Virus record (IMG/VR): IMGVR_UViG_3300021963_000289
Location: 1-38,951 of that record
Length of the DNA: 38,951 nt
DNA from: a virus
Strand: one strand, 5' to 3'
The notes below the pieces were generated by a model, which was not told the origin of the DNA, did not search any database, and saw nothing but the letters and a program-made list of their open reading frames with translations. The translations under genes were made by a program, and so were the position numbers. Shown here piece after piece: positions 19,864 through 33,316 of this stretch; the first letter of the stretch is position 1, and the number at the start of each line of letters is the position of its first letter.

Positions 19864-22800
19864 ATGAGCGCTAGCAATTCAATATCACAATTACTTGAGC
19901 AATTCTTAGAGTTAAATACTAACTCTTTAGAAACATTCAACAGAATTAATGAAGCAATAACCACTGATAAAGAAACAGTGGTTATTGACCTTTTCAACAG
20001 TAAGACAAACACTATGGAAACTATTCAAATACCGGCATTCGGATATTTGAAGAGAGAAATTGAGCGTTTAAATACTAATATTAATTCAATTAGTGGACTT
20101 GAAGGATCTAATGCAAATGTTAGATTAAAGGACGGATCTTATAGAACTATCCATACTGCTAGATTAAAAGGACCATCACCTTCAATTACAAATCTTGCAG
20201 CACCAACCACATTTAGCACAAAATTAAACGAATTTTTCGAAGATTTTTTAAATCCATTATTAACTGTAAACTTAGACGTTACTGGTCAAATTCCAGTAGA
20301 AACCGAAAAGGTTTATGTTGAAAGATTTATTTTTAATGAAAATGATTTAGCTTCAATAACTGCGTTTGACGAAATATACAAAGGTGGTAGCGAAATAGAT
20401 TATGCTACGTTTAAAAACCAATTATTAGATGGTGCATATTTACATTATATCGATGCTGAGGTTTTAGACATGCCGATGAGAATGATTCAATACACTGGAT
20501 TTTTAGACGTTACCAAAATCGATAATGCTGAAAAAACACAAGTAATTGATGGAGTATCTCAAACAAAAACCGTTAAATTATATACACTTAACAAATTAAC
20601 ATATACTGATTCTACTAAAGCTCTTAAAGATACTGAAACTTTAAAGGTTAGTGATTCATTAATTGTTAATTCAGGAAATTACAGAACAAGATACCAAATT
20701 GTTTCAATCGATAGCTCAACTTCACAAGTTGAATTATTATTGTTAGAAGGTTCTGAGTCTATTAAATTAGGTACAAATCAATTAGGAATCTATAAAGACG
20801 TAGATACTAATTTAGACATTGAAATTAAAGTTGGATTTAACGAAAGACAAGTTATCTTTGTTAAGCCAATTGATCCCGTTTCTAAAATACCAGCTGAAAA
20901 TTATTCTCCAGGTATTGCATTCTATTCGAATGAATTAGAAATCACAGATACTGCTGGAGTTAAAATGACTCTTGCTCAATATTATAAAAACGAGGTTTCT
21001 GACTTTGGACAATTTATTAAATCGCTAAAGGTAGATTACATTCCGCCAGCGGCCGTTGGTATTGTTCCAAGTGCACCTGCAATTGACACAGCTAACTTTA
21101 AAGTAGTTCAAATAAATAAACATCTTACCGATAATACTACAACCGATAAGATTAAACAACTTAAGGCTGATAAAATATCGACAGAGCAAACTCTTAAGAA
21201 ATTAGATGAGTCGATCAAGCAAAAGAAATCTTTAATCAACACTAAGAAATTTAGTTCAACTGCAGAAAAAGATACTCATAAAAATGAGCTTAACTCTTTA
21301 ATCTCTCAAAAGGATTCTGAAGCTAAGTTATTTTCATCTGTAGTTACTGAAATTAAATCTTCAGCTGAATCTGCAGATTTACAAACAGTTGATCCAAAAT
21401 ATAAAGTTAGAGGATTCTGGTCTATTCCAGAACCTAAGAAAATAGGGAATCAAGTTTCCCAAGAAGTTGTTCAGTTTAAAATTAGATATCGATATGTTTC
21501 GACAACTGGTAAAACTGCAACGGTTGACCAAATTAAATTTGTTGATTCAACAAATCAAACTGAAAAAACAGCAGCATTCTCAAACTGGATTGAGGTTTTA
21601 GGACCAGTCAGAAAGAGACAAATGAATGCTGAAGGAAAATATGAATGGATTATTGAAAGTGAAGAAGATGCAAACGCAGTTAACTTCAATTCATTAGACA
21701 TTTCAATTAATCCTGGTGAGGTTGTTGAGTTTATGATTAAATCAATTTCAGAAGCTGGTTTCCCTGCGAATCCAGTAGAATCTGAATGGTCTGAAATTAA
21801 TAGAATTGAATTCCCACAAGGAGAAATTAATACAGATGCTATGGGATCTGTAATTAAAGCAAACGAAATGGATGCTTTAAAAGTACAAATTCAGCAAGAC
21901 TTAGAAGCTGCTGGAGTATTTACTCATGTTGGAGAATCTTTCACGGTTGGAGATACTACATATTCTCATAATGCAAATACTATTGCTTCAGGGTTTTTAA
22001 CAGATCAGCAAGCTCCTATTACTGTTTATGAAAAATTATTGGCTTTACAAAATGAAGTCCTTAGTTTAAGAGCTGTAATTGAAGGTACTACTGGAGAATT
22101 AATGGTAAGAATTATCGATGAAGATGGTAATGTAACTCCAGTAACGAATAATACAACAGTTGAATTATTTGCTGGATATTATGTTAATGAAATTCCAACA
22201 CAAGGTGGTAAAGGATATATTGTTACTAAAAACTTTAAAATTGAATTATCAAATACTAAAGCGACTGATCTAGAATTAATTGCTAGAATTGTTGGTGATA
22301 CTACAAAACCAGTTGCAGTTTCAACTGCGAATACAATATTTGGTTTAGGTACTGGTGCAGGATCGATTGATCCAACTTATGGTGCAGATTCTTATTATAC
22401 TACCGAAGCTAATTATGATCTAGTTCCTGTTGTTTATCAAAACATTGGAGCTGCGTCTGACGATTGGTTTACTCTTGGAAATCAGTCAACTCAACTTAAA
22501 GGACAGTTTTTATATTCTAGATTTAGAAATGCAGCAAATGACGATAATCTTTACGTAATTACGGAAGGTGCTGCCGGAGATATCGATAATTCATTTTTAA
22601 CAGGGTACGATACTTATGAATATGGCCTTAAATTTAATTATTCAACGCAACCTTCGATTTCTGCATCTAAAGTAACGTCTTTCCAAAATGCTGTAATTAC
22701 GCCATACGCTGCGGATAACGGTGTTAATGATTTTATATGGAATGGAAGTTGGTCAGGATCAACTCCTAATAAAGTTTCAGTTGCTACGATTACAAATGCG

Positions 22801-23508
22801 TCATATAGTAAAGGAATGTTTATGCATATTTCACATCCTCTTTTACAAAACGGAGTAATTACGCCTGAAACAATTGTAAGTAACGGACAAGTCGGAATGA
22901 CAAAAACAGCACCTTTAAGATCTACTGATTCTAATGGTAAAAAACAAACGCCGTTTAGACTATTAAAAACAATTAATAAAGCAGGAGTTCCAGGATTTAG
23001 ATCAACGATTAAAACATCTTTCTCACCAGAGGATCAATATTTATTGGGTGGATATTCATGTGGATCATTCCTATATCTTTCACCGTTGAACCTAAATTCA
23101 CTAGTGGTTAATGCCCCTAATAAAAATGGTAAGAAAATAATACCTGGAGGAAGCGCTAATTCAATTTCGGTAGACTTGGTATTCCAATATAGAATGACAG
23201 ATTATTATGGAGTTGGAGACACAGGAACTGGTAGAGTTGGAGGTATTTTAGATAATACACTGACTAATTTAACATACTCAAAAAAGATAGGTATAGATAT
23301 ATTAGGTCTTGGAAAAACTGATTTCCAATTTGATGTTGAAGTTTACGCTAAATATACAACTCAAGGTAAAAACATTAATAATATTACAAGTACAATGCTT
23401 TCAAATTATGCGACAAATTACAATACAGGTAATGGATTCGGTGGAAGAAGAAAGTATTTAACAGATAATACAATTAACTTCTCATATCCAGATATTAATA
23501 TGTACTAA
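19864..23508 (+). CDS. Very large structural protein with coiled coil and fibronectin-like region
   Basis: 1214 aa. The N-terminus (1-80) is helical (ISQLLEQFLELNTNSLETF). Residues 85-420 are beta-rich. About 425-500 are a Lys/Gln-rich coiled coil (IKQLKADKISTEQTLKKLDE). About 515-650 resemble a fibronectin/Ig-type module (EVVQFKIRYRYVSTTGKTAT; INPGEVVEFMIKSISEAGFP). A second helical stretch YEKLLALQNEVLSLRAVIEG (about 722-741) leads to a beta-rich C-terminal 450 residues. This multi-domain layout suits a peripheral baseplate or fibre-network protein (a gp10-like role by position is only a guess). A perfect 12-bp hairpin lies about 90 nt into the gene (19955-19987). Confidence 0.6.
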   Translation: MSASNSISQLLEQFLELNTNSLETFNRINEAITTDKETVVIDLFNSKTNTMETIQIPAFGYLKREIERLNTNINSISGLEGSNANVRLKDGSYRTIHTARLKGPSPSITNLAAPTTFSTKLNEFFEDFLNPLLTVNLDVTGQIPVETEKVYVERFIFNENDLASITAFDEIYKGGSEIDYATFKNQLLDGAYLHYIDAEVLDMPMRMIQYTGFLDVTKIDNAEKTQVIDGVSQTKTVKLYTLNKLTYTDSTKALKDTETLKVSDSLIVNSGNYRTRYQIVSIDSSTSQVELLLLEGSESIKLGTNQLGIYKDVDTNLDIEIKVGFNERQVIFVKPIDPVSKIPAENYSPGIAFYSNELEITDTAGVKMTLAQYYKNEVSDFGQFIKSLKVDYIPPAAVGIVPSAPAIDTANFKVVQINKHLTDNTTTDKIKQLKADKISTEQTLKKLDESIKQKKSLINTKKFSSTAEKDTHKNELNSLISQKDSEAKLFSSVVTEIKSSAESADLQTVDPKYKVRGFWSIPEPKKIGNQVSQEVVQFKIRYRYVSTTGKTATVDQIKFVDSTNQTEKTAAFSNWIEVLGPVRKRQMNAEGKYEWIIESEEDANAVNFNSLDISINPGEVVEFMIKSISEAGFPANPVESEWSEINRIEFPQGEINTDAMGSVIKANEMDALKVQIQQDLEAAGVFTHVGESFTVGDTTYSHNANTIASGFLTDQQAPITVYEKLLALQNEVLSLRAVIEGTTGELMVRIIDEDGNVTPVTNNTTVELFAGYYVNEIPTQGGKGYIVTKNFKIELSNTKATDLELIARIVGDTTKPVAVSTANTIFGLGTGAGSIDPTYGADSYYTTEANYDLVPVVYQNIGAASDDWFTLGNQSTQLKGQFLYSRFRNAANDDNLYVITEGAAGDIDNSFLTGYDTYEYGLKFNYSTQPSISASKVTSFQNAVITPYAADNGVNDFIWNGSWSGSTPNKVSVATITNASYSKGMFMHISHPLLQNGVITPETIVSNGQVGMTKTAPLRSTDSNGKKQTPFRLLKTINKAGVPGFRSTIKTSFSPEDQYLLGGYSCGSFLYLSPLNLNSLVVNAPNKNGKKIIPGGSANSISVDLVFQYRMTDYYGVGDTGTGRVGGILDNTLTNLTYSKKIGIDILGLGKTDFQFDVEVYAKYTTQGKNINNITSTMLSNYATNYNTGNGFGGRRKYLTDNTINFSYPDINMY
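19955..19987 (+). repeat. Perfect 12-bp inverted repeat inside the 1214-aa gene
   Basis: Arms CAATAACCACTG (19955-19966) and CAGTGGTTATTG (19976-19987) are exact reverse complements with a 9-nt loop. It begins 91 nt after the ATG. There is no T-tract, so it is not an ordinary terminator. Confidence 0.85.
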
Positions 23509-28042: not shown

Positions 28043-30832
28043 ATGGCTATTAACATTAAGGAATTATTTAGAAGCGATCTGGATCCTAACGGTACACTAT
28101 GGTGGTCTGAAGACAAGATAGATAAAGTTAACTATAATTTTGGTCTACTGTCTAACGGTGGAATGCCAGGGCCTCAGGGTTCTATAGGACCTGATGGAGA
28201 TTTTGGTCCAATTGGAATGAGAGGACCTCAAGGTTATCAAGGGTTTCAAGGACCTCAGGGATTACAAGGAGAATACGCGATAAATGATTGGGTTTATTAT
28301 GCAGATACTATAAGTAGCACTGGATATTTATTTGTTAAGAAAAACATTAATTCTACTTTAGAGTATTCTCCAGTAGTAATGAGAATTGGTATTGATAAAA
28401 ACGATTCCAGATATACAGTTCCGAGTTCTTATTACGATTATGTTGTTTTATCAAACGTTAACCCTAATATATTAGATACTAAAAGTCCTAAAATAAATTT
28501 AAGACTGCAAAGTGATGGAAAGTTTTCAGACTATAAATTAACAAAAAAAATAACGATCGATGGTAGCATTGATGAATTACATATTGGTAAATTTGCATCT
28601 GGAGAATCTGGTTTTGAAATAATTTATCCTTCTGAAAATTTAAAATTGCGTTCAATAACACCACAAAATGGAAACACAACTGACACTCACGAAATAAGCG
28701 ATTCTTTAATAAAAATTAACTCGCGACCATCTCAAAACGGAGCTGTAACAGCTTCAGCAGCTCTTAGTAATATTTCAGGAAAACATACTAGATCAAACCA
28801 TACTTTTAATTATAGTAAAGGGGCTCAGATAGATTATGTTTTAGTATCGGATGACTCAACTGGTAAGTCAAATTGGAGAGATAAAAACTCACTATTTGGT
28901 AGTTATCCAATAGGTTCTATTATTTCAATTAGAGAATCTGATTTTAATTCAACTAACTTTCATTTAAATGAAACTCAATATCAGAATGGAAGCCCATTAC
29001 CAGTTCTTAAAAATTTATTTGGTAGAGGAAAGGTGAATACTGATTTTGCGGGATGGTACCTATGTAACGGAGAATCTTGGGAAATTTCACCAGGAGTTAA
29101 TAGCATTTTAACACCTAATTTGAATTCTTTTAATTATAACATTGGATCAAATGGAGGAGAACAAAATGCAATAACGAACGGAGGAAGCAATGATAAAATA
29201 ATCGTTGGAGGTTATGATTTAAACGTTAACGCTGCTTTTAACAGTGCTAATAATAGTTATAACGTTCAATTTACAAATACATGGAATGACAATAACAGCG
29301 GAGATGTTACTATCGATATGGGTACATCATCTCCGACAGATTCGTATGTAAGTAGAATGGTTCATATAGTTTACTTAGAAAATACAAGCCTTACATGGTC
29401 TAAGTCTAATGTCGCACCTCCAACTATAGTAACGACTCCTATTTCTTTAGGATATTCTTTATTAAATTCACCGTCACCTAATGGTATCTGTGATGTACAA
29501 ACTTCTAATACTTATTCATGGAATGGAACTTCAGGAAGCTGGTCAACGTTTAATGAATCAAATGGAGGAGTTTATTTGTATTCTCACAATACTACCAATT
29601 TTGCGCCAACTGGATATTATATAGATGTAGCAACTGGAATATGGAGATATTGGAATGCAACAACACAGACTTTTTCTAGTCCCACAACATGCGTTGTTAT
29701 TCCTTCATTTAATATATTTTTAGTTTCTTCAGATAGAGTTGACCAATATATCAACGGTCCTGTTAGCCAATTTACGATTCCATTACAGTTTAAAATAGAT
29801 AATTCTGATTTTAAATTTGCAACTACTCTTAAATACGGATTTAACAATGGCGTTGCAGCAGCAGGATGGTACCGAGACGTTGTTACTGGTAGAAGAAGAT
29901 ACTGGAATGGATCTTCATTCCAAGGAGTTGGATTCACCAATGATTATGTGTATTCAGTACAAGATACTGCCGGAAATCATACTGGATTTAATATGGTAAC
30001 TAGTGTTTCTACTGCATGTGGAGCATCGAATACAAGATACGAATCTTATGTTGCAACTGATAATGAGCTAGTATTTACTGATATTTCAAATATCATAGGA
30101 TTAATTTTATGGGTACCTCAAAACTGGATCGGTCTTCCGGGACAACCTACACCTGCTCTTGTTAATATTATAAGTCAAAATGCGCCATCACAAACAACAA
30201 CATGGAAGAGAGTGTATCATAATGGCGATTTTGAAAGTGTAACTGCTTCAATTAACCAAACAACAGGAATAGTTAACACTCCTACATTATGTACTGCAGG
30301 AACTTCAGGAACTGGAGGTACAGGAGGAACTGGTGGATCTGGGTGTTTAATAGAAGGAACAAATATATTAATGGCCGATGGAACTACTAATAAAATAGAA
30401 AATCTAAAGGTTGGAGATAGTTTATCTAGTAAATTAATTGAAGGAATGCCAATTAAAGAGGATCAAACTTTATTAGATTGGAGAAATTCCGGAGATATTA
30501 AATTACAAAAAGAATCAGTAGAATTAAAGAGTATAAAATTATTTGAAGTAGATACTGTTCTATCATTTAATAATAAAACAATAGTTTCATCAAAAGACCA
30601 TTTACATGTTATTAAGCAAAATGGAATTTGGAGAATTCTTCGAGGTGATGAAATTAAAATTGGAGATTATTTATTAGACCAAACCGGTAAAGAAATAGAA
30701 ATAGAAATTATAGATATTTTTATAGGAAACTTTAAAGTTTATAAATTAGATGTTGAAGAAAACGATTTATTTATTGCTAATGGAATATTAACACATAATT
30801 TAAAAAATGCGCTAGCGCCAGACGCTGTATAA
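28043..30832 (+). CDS. Collagen-like tail-collar fibre with C-terminal Hint (intein-like) domain
   Basis: 929 aa, starting 2 bases after the previous stop. Domains: an N-terminal attachment segment (1-39, KIDKVNYNFGLLSNGG); 12 uninterrupted Gly-X-Y triplets (40-75); a beta-rich shaft; and a tail-collar domain with AGWYLCNGESW (336-346) and TPNLNSFNYNIG. Then come two copies of a GYYxDxxTGxxRYWN motif (about 524 and 607) and a Gly/Thr/Ser linker (about 752-767). A complete Hint domain follows (768-919). It has Cys768 in CLIEGTNILMADGT, VGD (790-792), block-B SKDH with His853, IGDYLLD (873-879), and ends KVYKLDVEENDLFIANG plus LTHN (His918, Asn919). Only ten residues follow, beginning with Leu920. 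Role: receptor-binding fibre whose tip may be cleaved or ligated autocatalytically. Without a Cys/Ser/Thr at +1, full splicing is unlikely; cleavage fits better (inference). Confidence 0.85.
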   Translation: MAINIKELFRSDLDPNGTLWWSEDKIDKVNYNFGLLSNGGMPGPQGSIGPDGDFGPIGMRGPQGYQGFQGPQGLQGEYAINDWVYYADTISSTGYLFVKKNINSTLEYSPVVMRIGIDKNDSRYTVPSSYYDYVVLSNVNPNILDTKSPKINLRLQSDGKFSDYKLTKKITIDGSIDELHIGKFASGESGFEIIYPSENLKLRSITPQNGNTTDTHEISDSLIKINSRPSQNGAVTASAALSNISGKHTRSNHTFNYSKGAQIDYVLVSDDSTGKSNWRDKNSLFGSYPIGSIISIRESDFNSTNFHLNETQYQNGSPLPVLKNLFGRGKVNTDFAGWYLCNGESWEISPGVNSILTPNLNSFNYNIGSNGGEQNAITNGGSNDKIIVGGYDLNVNAAFNSANNSYNVQFTNTWNDNNSGDVTIDMGTSSPTDSYVSRMVHIVYLENTSLTWSKSNVAPPTIVTTPISLGYSLLNSPSPNGICDVQTSNTYSWNGTSGSWSTFNESNGGVYLYSHNTTNFAPTGYYIDVATGIWRYWNATTQTFSSPTTCVVIPSFNIFLVSSDRVDQYINGPVSQFTIPLQFKIDNSDFKFATTLKYGFNNGVAAAGWYRDVVTGRRRYWNGSSFQGVGFTNDYVYSVQDTAGNHTGFNMVTSVSTACGASNTRYESYVATDNELVFTDISNIIGLILWVPQNWIGLPGQPTPALVNIISQNAPSQTTTWKRVYHNGDFESVTASINQTTGIVNTPTLCTAGTSGTGGTGGTGGSGCLIEGTNILMADGTTNKIENLKVGDSLSSKLIEGMPIKEDQTLLDWRNSGDIKLQKESVELKSIKLFEVDTVLSFNNKTIVSSKDHLHVIKQNGIWRILRGDEIKIGDYLLDQTGKEIEIEIIDIFIGNFKVYKLDVEENDLFIANGILTHNLKNALAPDAV
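30344..30799 (+). other. Hint/BIL-type autoprocessing domain (within fibre gene)
   Basis: Encodes residues 768-919 of the fibre. Nucleophile Cys768 follows a Gly-rich linker, block-B histidine is His853 in SKDH, and the end is His918-Asn919. The domain is 152 aa, typical for a Hint fold without homing endonuclease. The +1 residue is Leu, like A-type bacterial intein-like domains rather than classical inteins. Confidence 0.85.
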
Positions 30833-30883: not shown

Positions 30884-33316
30884 ATGATAATAAATCTGAA
30901 ACAGTTAAACCTTGCCGATAGCGATAATATAAAACTTGACAAAATTAATTATAATTTTGATCAGTTAGTTGCTAATGGAGGAGGGCCTCAAGGACCTACT
31001 GGAAGTAAAGGAGATACTGGAGCTCAAGGTGTTACCGGTGCTCGAGGATTTCAGGGATTTCAAGGACCTATTGGTGTTCAAGGATTGCCGGGAATAAACA
31101 CATCAGCATATTGGAAAAATATACAAGGTATTCCTGGAAGTTTATCAGCAGATACGATAGTACCTATTCACAATCCAACAACTACACCTCCGACGCCATC
31201 CATGGATTATCCTCCTGTTGTTTCTGTAGGATTTGTTAGCACTGATACTCAATATAATACAGCGCAGCCTCTTGGAGGAGGAACTGTTCCATACCAATGG
31301 ATAATTAATAGAAAAGATCACTTTGCTTCTAATTTAAGATTTACAAGTAGTGATGTTTTAAATAACTATGTAGATTTTAGAATAGAAAATGATGCACCAA
31401 ATTCTGTTAATAGATTTATAATGAAATTTGGTACTCCAACTGGTTCATCTTTCATATGGTATGCTCAAAATCATATATTTAAAAGCAACATTACTGGAAA
31501 TTCTTTATTAACTATTTCCGATTCTTCAATAGAATATAATGTAAATACTGAATTTAATCGACCAGTTACTGTAAAAGAGCAGTTGATTATTGGAAATTCC
31601 GGAGCTGCTACTGATAAAATTGCAGTTTCAGCAGATTCTTCTGGTAAAATAACATTTAAGAGTATTAAAGAACTTGGAGGAGTTGTTCCTTACGGCACAA
31701 TAATTTCAATACTTCCTTCTATTTTTTCAGATAATTCAAAATTTATTACCGGAGAATCTATAACTTTAGCGAGTCCAACTGATTTATTGAAGATTAGAGT
31801 GGGTTCTGGGCTTGGCGATTACGAAGGATGGTATGTTTGTAATGGTAAAACATGGAAGGGTACGATCGATCATATCGTGCCAGACTTAAATTCATTTTCA
31901 TATACGATTGGAGATAATACAAATAGTATAGATCCTAACAGTCAGGGTTCTGCTTCAGTAACTAATCCAGAAACTCACATTATGGGAGGTGCTGATTTAT
32001 CAATGACAGCAACTAATGTTGCACCTGGAGTTTATGGTGTTGGATCAACTAGAGCAACAACATCTGTTAGCATTGACACTACATCTGGAGGAAGTACTTA
32101 TAAAATTAAAAGATTACCTCAAATAATTTATTTAGGTGAAGGTGGATGCTATTGGCAAGATAGCGGAAGTGGACAAGCTCCCGCAACTTCTTTAAATTTC
32201 CAAATTACTGATGCAAATACTGGAGCAAATAAATTAAGTCCAAATCCTACGAGTTTAGGATCTGCGACATATACACAAGGAGGTTCATATATACATACAC
32301 AAACGTTAACAGCTCCTGCTGGATATTATTGGTCAGCATCTCCTGTTATTGGAAAACCGTCTTATATAGATGGAGTTACAGTAACGATGGGCGGAGGTAC
32401 ATATCCAACTACAATAACATTAGATATTAGTGTAGATACTCAACCTGCCGCTGGAAACACTGCTAATTTAACAATAGATACTTCTAGTTTAATAGTAGCG
32501 TATCCTAATAGTACTGTTAAATATGCTCATCCTTCATGGTACTCGTCGATTGATGCAGTAACTAATGGAACTGTTCATCAAGTATATGATTTAGGAACTG
32601 ATCCTAATTCTGCCGGTACATTAACGTATACTGGAAGTGTTACTGCTTTAACCGGAACTGTAAGGTATATTAAATATAGACTTAAGGCTGATGATTATTT
32701 CTATAAATTTATATCTCCTTCAACTTCTAACGTTACGATGGGTATTGTTTCTCCTACTAATACAAATATAACAGTACATTCTGTTACCGCTAATAGTGAT
32801 TTCTATGTTGATTTGATTATTAAAGATAATAACTTTGGTTCAACAAATCCGGGAGGATCAACAGACCAAATGTTATACATTAGTGCTAGTGCAACATCAT
32901 ATACAGACGCTGTTAATTCAACAGGAAGTGGAATGCCTTCAAATAGTTTAAATTATTCAACATCAGGATCTAGTAATTTAGCAATAAGTTTATTTGGTCT
33001 TGTAAGACTAAGACCCGGCGCTGGAACAGTTAAATTAAGATTTAGAGCAATTTCTTATAACTATATAAGCGGAGGAACCGCGCAATGTTCAAATAATGGA
33101 GTTACTTCTACTGTAAATTTCCCATATATAACTACAACAGGAAATGTTACAAATATTGCGAATCCATCTTCATGGACTGCTGTAGATAACACAACTCTAA
33201 CATTTAGTGGTAATCCAACAATTAACACAGGAGCTGGTGGTACTTTTGGAAGTGCAGCGTTGGATGTTCAATATTCTAGTGATGGCGAAGTAACATGGAG
33301 ACAATTAGGAGCATAA
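30884..33316 (+). CDS. Collagen-like tail-collar fibre, paralogue without Hint domain
   Basis: 810 aa. Paralogous to the preceding fibre in its N-terminal half: an attachment segment with DKINYNFDQLVANGG (19-33), 12 Gly-X-Y triplets (34-69), a beta-rich shaft, and a tail-collar domain with YEGWYVCNGKTW (313-324) and VPDLNSFSYTIG. The C-terminal 400 residues are unrelated to the first fibre. They are Thr/Ser/Gly-rich, low in charge, with repetitive beta strands (ANLTIDTSSLIVAYPNSTVK; GNVTNIANPSSWTAVDNTTL) and end in SSDGEVTWRQLGA. This pattern suits a trimeric receptor-binding tip that varies between phages. Two fibres with a shared base and different tips suggest alternative or co-mounted adhesins (inference). 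There is no catalytic motif. Confidence 0.82.
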   Translation: MIINLKQLNLADSDNIKLDKINYNFDQLVANGGGPQGPTGSKGDTGAQGVTGARGFQGFQGPIGVQGLPGINTSAYWKNIQGIPGSLSADTIVPIHNPTTTPPTPSMDYPPVVSVGFVSTDTQYNTAQPLGGGTVPYQWIINRKDHFASNLRFTSSDVLNNYVDFRIENDAPNSVNRFIMKFGTPTGSSFIWYAQNHIFKSNITGNSLLTISDSSIEYNVNTEFNRPVTVKEQLIIGNSGAATDKIAVSADSSGKITFKSIKELGGVVPYGTIISILPSIFSDNSKFITGESITLASPTDLLKIRVGSGLGDYEGWYVCNGKTWKGTIDHIVPDLNSFSYTIGDNTNSIDPNSQGSASVTNPETHIMGGADLSMTATNVAPGVYGVGSTRATTSVSIDTTSGGSTYKIKRLPQIIYLGEGGCYWQDSGSGQAPATSLNFQITDANTGANKLSPNPTSLGSATYTQGGSYIHTQTLTAPAGYYWSASPVIGKPSYIDGVTVTMGGGTYPTTITLDISVDTQPAAGNTANLTIDTSSLIVAYPNSTVKYAHPSWYSSIDAVTNGTVHQVYDLGTDPNSAGTLTYTGSVTALTGTVRYIKYRLKADDYFYKFISPSTSNVTMGIVSPTNTNITVHSVTANSDFYVDLIIKDNNFGSTNPGGSTDQMLYISASATSYTDAVNSTGSGMPSNSLNYSTSGSSNLAISLFGLVRLRPGAGTVKLRFRAISYNYISGGTAQCSNNGVTSTVNFPYITTTGNVTNIANPSSWTAVDNTTLTFSGNPTINTGAGGTFGSAALDVQYSSDGEVTWRQLGA

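What the first reader, a model, noticed from the sequence alone, without database searches (positions are those of the whole stretch)
30344..30799. Complete Hint (intein-like) autoprocessing domain at the C-terminus of a collagen-like tail fibre
Seen: Cys768 after a Gly-rich linker, block-B His853, terminal His918-Asn919, 152 aa, then only ten more residues beginning with Leu. Known: Hint domains self-process; A-type bacterial intein-like domains end in His-Asn with a non-nucleophile at +1 and mostly cleave. Inference: the fibre tip could be cleaved off, or the thioester could be attacked by an amine or water to couple the fibre to a host surface molecule. A phage adhesin with such a covalent-chemistry module could be a new fibre-maturation or attachment mechanism.
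Basis: partly seen in the sequence, partly recalled or inferred. Interest (0 to 1): 0.82.

Follow-up and report, generated by a model that had tools for sequence, protein, structure and literature searches.

The report
Self-cleaving module tagging phage fibres
The end of this phage tail fibre carries a small protein machine of the intein/hedgehog kind, with its active-site residues intact; it looks like a mobile add-on that probably cuts itself off the fibre, and similar add-ons recur on fibres of many unrelated phages.

Summary
Confirmed: window ORF 28043-30832 is a 929-aa collagen-like fibre ending in a complete Hint domain (Cys768, block-B Ser-x-x-His853, His918-Asn919), then ten residues starting with Leu. 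A model (pLDDT 89, pTM 0.85) matches Tetrahymena BIL2 and Clostridium BIL best, so it is an A-type-like bacterial intein-like (BIL) domain. New here: (1) the Gly linker and Hint are appended after the fibre's native C-terminus, because Hint-less homologues stop where the linker starts. (2) The module is sporadic and mobile: 4 of 66 complete fibre-1 homologues carry it, needing at least three changes, with one origin rejected; between window and nearest relative it has the lowest synonymous divergence of any such stretch. (3) The architecture recurs on virion-type proteins of many phages: 32 of 32 diverged clusters with Cys1 also keep block-B His and His-Asn. Three free-standing copies with no upstream protein lost Cys1 and block-B His, which ties catalysis to cutting the upstream junction. 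Most likely it severs itself at Gly767/Cys768, shedding the Hint and leaving a native fibre plus Gly tail. Host coupling is unsupported; conjugation to amines and ligation of the tail remain open. Activity is not shown. Hint annotations in phage proteins exist; no functional account was found.

The parts
28043..30832 (+). Collagen-like tail fibre gene (fibre 1), 929 aa, with a C-terminal Hint
   Evidence: ORF; PHROG tail fibre hits, best 1.1e-9; Pfam Collagen 4e-5, below gathering cut-off; homologues next to the same 1492-aa gene in many viral contigs
28160..28273 (+). Collagen-like Gly-x-y stretch, residues 40-77
   Evidence: Pfam PF01391 match 40-77
30293..30343 (+). Gly-rich linker, residues 751-767, starting just after the native fibre C-terminus
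   Evidence: Hint-less homologues L068, L087, L055, L080, L074 end at this point
30344..30799 (+). Hint domain, A-type BIL-like, residues 768-919
   Evidence: AlphaFold2 and Foldseek; profile hits; alignment A4
30344..30346 (+). Cys768, block-A nucleophile (Hint residue 1); predicted scissile bond Gly767-Cys768
   Evidence: Sequence; invariant in A4 and present in all 32 clusters that have an N-terminal protein part and an aligned block A
30599..30601 (+). His853, block-B (S/T-x-x-H) histidine
   Evidence: Sequence; invariant in A4
30794..30799 (+). His918-Asn919, terminal block-G pair
   Evidence: Sequence; invariant in A4
30800..30829 (+). Ten-residue tail LKNALAPDAV, +1 = Leu
   Evidence: unrelated to the tail of the nearest relative L002 (KVAPIEGISPE)
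30884..33316 (+). Paralogous collagen-like fibre 2, without Hint here; its homologue in L079/L086 carries one

Best explanation
The module is a mobile, A-type BIL-like Hint appended to the C-terminus of a phage fibre. Steps: (1) the fibre is made with the Hint as a C-terminal extension on a flexible Gly linker. (2) The Hint folds on its own; Cys768, helped by His853, converts the Gly767-Cys768 peptide bond to a thioester. (3) The thioester is hydrolysed, or attacked by a small thiol, in the cytoplasm of the producing cell. The Hint leaves, and the fibre keeps its native end plus a short Gly tail. (4) Asn919 may also cyclise and drop the ten-residue tail. Because it removes itself, the module costs the fibre little and can spread between fibre genes, as a terminal counterpart of an intein; a transient cap or solubility role before cleavage is possible. 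Shown here: fold, residues, conservation, appended position, sporadic and mobile distribution. Inferred: cleavage, its order, its timing and any benefit.
For: BIL fold. Cys1, block-B His and His-Asn are among only eight invariant columns at about 25-45% identity, and all 32 clusters with Cys1 keep all of them; these residues were not in the search patterns. Free-standing copies without an upstream protein (NCTB BN7874_135, L029, L036) lost Cys1 and block-B His, so these residues are kept where there is a junction to cut. Thirty of 32 clusters have 1-26 residues after Asn, so the upstream junction is the consequential one. The -1 residue is Gly in 29 of 56 Hint sequences. Hint-less fibres end where the linker begins. 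On the fibre-1 tree Hint presence needs at least three changes and one clade is rejected, yet the Hints of two separate fibre lineages group together. The Hint has the lowest pS of any 152-codon stretch against L052 (0.27; 0 of 4000 other windows as low). A-type BILs lacking a nucleophilic +1 residue mainly cleave (PMC7664689, PMC7765530).
Against: No activity, virion or structural data. The invariant His-Asn suggests that the C-terminal step matters too, though it also persists in the copies that lost Cys1. Low pS could partly reflect local codon constraint. No homing endonuclease lies inside the domain, so how it moves is unknown. Many losses rather than transfers could also give a patchy distribution.
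Confidence: 0.6

Rival explanations
1. Conjugation: the Gly767 thioester is attacked by an amine (Lys or N-terminus) of another fibre chain or virion protein, giving an ATP-free covalent cross-link, as Tetrahymena BIL2 does with ubiquitin-like domains.
For: The closest sequence and fold is BIL2, reported to make isopeptide bonds (PMC8616854). The Gly-rich end resembles a conjugation tail. Seven of 18 searched phage records carry two or more Hints of this kind, on different proteins.
Against: No acceptor is identified and no adduct-recognition region follows the Hint. Most homologous fibres do without the module.
Confidence: 0.17
2. Splicing: Asn919 cyclises first, and the freed amine of the short tail attacks the thioester, so the tail is ligated to the fibre and the Hint is excised, intein-like without a +1 nucleophile.
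For: His-Asn is invariant. Trans-splicing by a BIL without a nucleophilic side chain is in the literature (Aranko 2013, cited in PMC7664689). In L088-L090 the 22 residues after His-Asn resemble the native C-terminus of Hint-less homologues. The tail is conserved in Erwinia/Dickeya phages (TDIVAKAEKK).
Against: In fibre 1 the tails of window and L002 are unrelated, and tails shrink to one residue (L128).
Confidence: 0.12
3. Structural or adhesive tip: the Hint is kept whole on the virion as a fibre-tip domain and its chemistry is vestigial.
For: C-terminal placement at a fibre end; some copies lack Cys1.
Against: Strict conservation of the catalytic set in the clusters with an upstream protein and an aligned block A; clear loss in the detached copies.
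Confidence: 0.08
4. Degenerate canonical intein whose C-extein was lost by truncation.
For: Same superfamily; L088-L090 shows an intein-like insertion.
Against: A recurrent layout across many lineages, intact catalytic residues, a Gly linker, and fibre homologues that end before the linker; there is no downstream fibre sequence to have been lost.
Confidence: 0.03

Closest known systems
A-type bacterial intein-like (BIL) domains (C. thermocellum BIL, PDB 2lwy)
   Same: Hint fold, Cys1, block-B His, terminal His-Asn, non-nucleophile at +1, sits in a variable surface-type protein
   Different: Sits at the extreme C-terminus of a phage fibre with 1-26 residues after it in most relatives, often on a Gly linker, recurrently and patchily; known BILs are described from bacterial proteins
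Tetrahymena BUBL1 BIL2 (6y75, 6tmm)
   Same: Best match by sequence profile and by fold; Hint fused behind a protein to be released or conjugated
   Different: Between ubiquitin-like domains in a eukaryote, Zn-regulated, makes isopeptide bonds; no ubiquitin-like domain here
Hedgehog C-terminal (Hog) domain (1at0)
   Same: Fold; C-terminal autoprocessing domain acting on the upstream part only
   Different: Hog ends in a sterol/adduct-recognition region and lacks terminal His-Asn (own knowledge); the phage Hint has His-Asn and no such region
Peptidase S74 autocleaving chaperone domain of phage fibres
   Same: C-terminal domain of phage fibres that detaches itself (PMC7824862)
   Different: Unrelated fold and Ser-Lys chemistry; no S74 match here
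Phage proteins already annotated as Hint/intein-domain (NCTB 'large intein domain protein', phrog_38766 'virion structural protein', BFVD 'Hint domain containing protein')
   Same: Same domain and layout in part of them
   Different: Annotation only; no description of mobility, appended position or mechanism was found in the held library

Membership tests
A-type BIL domain | Hint (horseshoe) fold | tested here: met
   AlphaFold2 pLDDT 89 / pTM 0.85; Foldseek 6y75 E 1e-10, 2lwy E 2e-8
A-type BIL domain | Nucleophile (Cys) at domain residue 1 | tested here: met
   Cys768; invariant
A-type BIL domain | Block-B T/S-x-x-H | tested here: met
   S850-K-D-H853
A-type BIL domain | C-terminal His-Asn | tested here: met
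   His918-Asn919
A-type BIL domain | No nucleophilic residue at +1 | tested here: met
   Leu in window, Lys in L002; some relatives (Erwinia phages) have Thr
A-type BIL domain | Autocleavage activity | not testable with these tools
   Needs expression and mass spectrometry
Intein | Cys/Ser/Thr at +1 and splicing of a C-extein | tested here: not met
   +1 Leu; only ten residues follow, unrelated to those of L002; splicing itself not testable
Intein | Inserted inside a conserved protein that continues after it | tested here: not met
   Hint-less fibre homologues end before the linker; met only in the relatives L088-L090 on another gene
Hedgehog Hog domain | Sterol/adduct-recognition region after the Hint | tested here: not met
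   Ten residues follow
Peptidase S74 fibre chaperone | S74 domain | tested here: not met
   No Pfam match in the fibre

The most novel reading that the evidence does not exclude
Phage fibres carry a transferable, ATP-free covalent-conjugation tag: the Hint presents the fibre's Gly-rich end as a thioester that is joined to amines of other virion proteins (or a target), a use of BIL chemistry not known to me in viruses.
Probability: 0.12. Interest if true: 0.9.

Novelty: new variant of a known kind. Interest (0 to 1): 0.63.

Why it matters
Hint domains are known from inteins, hedgehog and bacterial surface or toxin proteins. Here the same chemistry appears as a mobile C-terminal appendage of phage fibres, gained repeatedly on different virion-type genes in distant phages. 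If it cleaves, it is a second, unrelated route to self-shedding fibre extensions besides S74; if it conjugates, it is a covalent assembly tool. It bears on an open question, what BIL domains do for their carriers, and there are cultured phages (Erwinia, Dickeya, Yersinia jumbo phages) in which it can be tested directly. The domains are also small candidate self-cleaving tags.

Tried and rejected
Coupling to a host surface as in hedgehog: no adduct region. Canonical intein: no extein continuation and +1 Leu. Single ancestral gain on fibre 1 without loss: at least three changes needed and one clade rejected. Paper searches found no account of Hint-bearing fibres; the phiCbK and CBB papers concern terminase and other inteins or report none. 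The jumbo-phage survey PMC7824862 discusses S74 but no Hint fibre. No virion proteomics that names these proteins was found.

Full report
OBSERVATION. Pfam gives sub-threshold hits to three Hint-type families and NCBIfam intein_Cterm passes its cutoff. A profile of 25 phage relatives hits Tetrahymena BIL2 at 5e-16 and the C. thermocellum BIL at 1e-10. The AlphaFold2 model is confident (pLDDT 89, pTM 0.85); Foldseek ranks BIL2 and the C. thermocellum BIL first, then inteins, with hedgehog further down.

WHERE IT SITS. The window is a fragment of a large phage genome. Its 1214-aa structural-type protein has relatives in Tenacibaculum PTm1/PTm5, Flavobacterium, Chryseobacterium, Sphingomonas PAU and Prevotella Lak phages, so a Bacteroidota-infecting jumbo phage is likely (inference). 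Fibre 1 lies between a 1492-aa structural-type protein and a second collagen-like fibre without Hint.

AN APPENDED MODULE. A scan with the neighbouring 1492-aa protein brought 80 relatives. Of 66 complete fibre-1 homologues only four (L052, L112, L121, L128) carry a Hint; of 70 complete fibre-2 homologues two (L079/L086) do. Near-copies are among these, so the numbers are not independent. Homologues without Hint that align to the C-terminal part mostly stop at or just after the residue where the Gly linker begins in the window (for example ...QTYGTITLPFQCP-stop against ...QTTGIVNTPTLCTAGTSGTGG...). So linker, Hint and tail were added behind a finished fibre.

MOBILE. On a tree of fibre 1 the Hint needs at least three changes, and a single Hint clade is rejected (p-AU 1e-83, quick tree). 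On the Hint tree the window and L002 group with L015 and L121 (92/97), although their fibres are far apart; the two Hints of record G013, on two different collagen-type genes, are sisters. L002, L014 and L052 are the same contig, and L015 and L112 are another. Between window and L002, synonymous divergence is about 1.25-1.41 in the fibre body (0.96 in the short linker) but 0.33 in the Hint. No other 152-codon stretch in six genes is as low (0 of 4000 windows), and the drop begins at the Gly-Cys border. This fits exchange of the module alone, though codon constraint is not fully excluded. In L088-L090 a Hint sits in the homologue of another window gene (19864-23508), between SSGGGG and 22 residues that resemble the native C-terminus of Hint-less homologues, with Lys at +1: an intein-like insertion.

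A RECURRENT LAYOUT. Scans gave 38 viral loci plus NCTB and Erwinia, Dickeya and Yersinia jumbo phages. Clustering at 70% leaves 42 groups. In the 32 with an upstream protein and an aligned Cys1, all keep block-B His and His-Asn, and 30 have only 1-26 residues after Asn. Gly is the -1 residue in 29 of 56 Hint sequences and the linker is often poly-Gly. In alignment A4 only eight columns are invariant, and Cys1, block-B His and both His-Asn are four of them; the scan patterns did not contain them, though the invariant Glu and Asp of the DVExND motif were in a pattern. Seven of 18 searched records carry two or three such Hints on different proteins.

A NATURAL CONTROL. NCTB and records G006 and G009 each hold a free-standing Hint of about 155 aa next to a collagen-Hint gene. 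These three have no upstream protein, and all lost Cys1 and the block-B His while keeping His-Asn. Catalytic residues for the N-terminal step are therefore kept where there is a junction to cut. That His-Asn survives in them means its conservation may be partly structural.

MECHANISM. The likely outcome is self-removal at Gly767/Cys768, with optional loss of the short tail. BILs without a nucleophilic +1 residue mainly cleave (PMC7664689, PMC7765530). Conjugation is possible since BIL2 makes isopeptide bonds (PMC8616854), and ligation of the tail is possible since BIL-mediated ligation without side-chain nucleophiles is in the literature cited by PMC7664689. Host coupling is least likely, as no adduct region follows and the fibre matures in the producing cell (inference). 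Whether the module helps the phage or merely rides on it is open; its patchiness says it is dispensable in this fibre family.

NOVELTY AND LIMITS. Hint or intein-domain annotations on phage proteins exist, but the held library has no account of their layout, mobility or function; subscription papers were not searchable. Nothing here shows activity.

Noticed in passing
L147:5001-5393 and L148:5001-5411: Two bacterial MAG alpha-2-macroglobulin proteins carry a complete Hint between the bait-region domain and the A2M domain, flanked by Gly-Gly before Cys and KGG after His-Asn. A self-processing module beside a protease-trap bait region looks unusual.
   Followed up: partly
L088/L089/L090 ORF from about 4816: Hint inserted before the last ~22 residues of the protein homologous to window 19864-23508; the residues after His-Asn resemble the native C-terminus of Hint-less homologues, with Lys at +1.
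   Followed up: partly
L004:14744-15205; L036 and L029 ORFs after the collagen-Hint gene: Free-standing Hint-like proteins of about 155 aa lacking Cys1 and block-B His but keeping His-Asn, next to a collagen-Hint gene.
   Followed up: partly
L007:7657-8514: An HNH endonuclease gene lies inside the fibre/Hint cluster of Erwinia phage Yoloswag, a possible means of spreading modules.
   Followed up: no
G012:C1:71797-72261 (L050): The Hint frame has two in-frame TAG codons, which may mean a TAG-recoding phage.
   Followed up: no
L031, L025, L042, L045 and relatives: A group in which the Hint is followed by about 100 residues rather than a short tail; similar BFVD proteins are named Fibronectin type III.
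   Followed up: no
window 29480-30290: The fibre region before the linker holds a repeated motif (GYYIDVATGIWRYWN / GWYRDVVTGRRRYWN), possibly repeated adhesin units.
   Followed up: no
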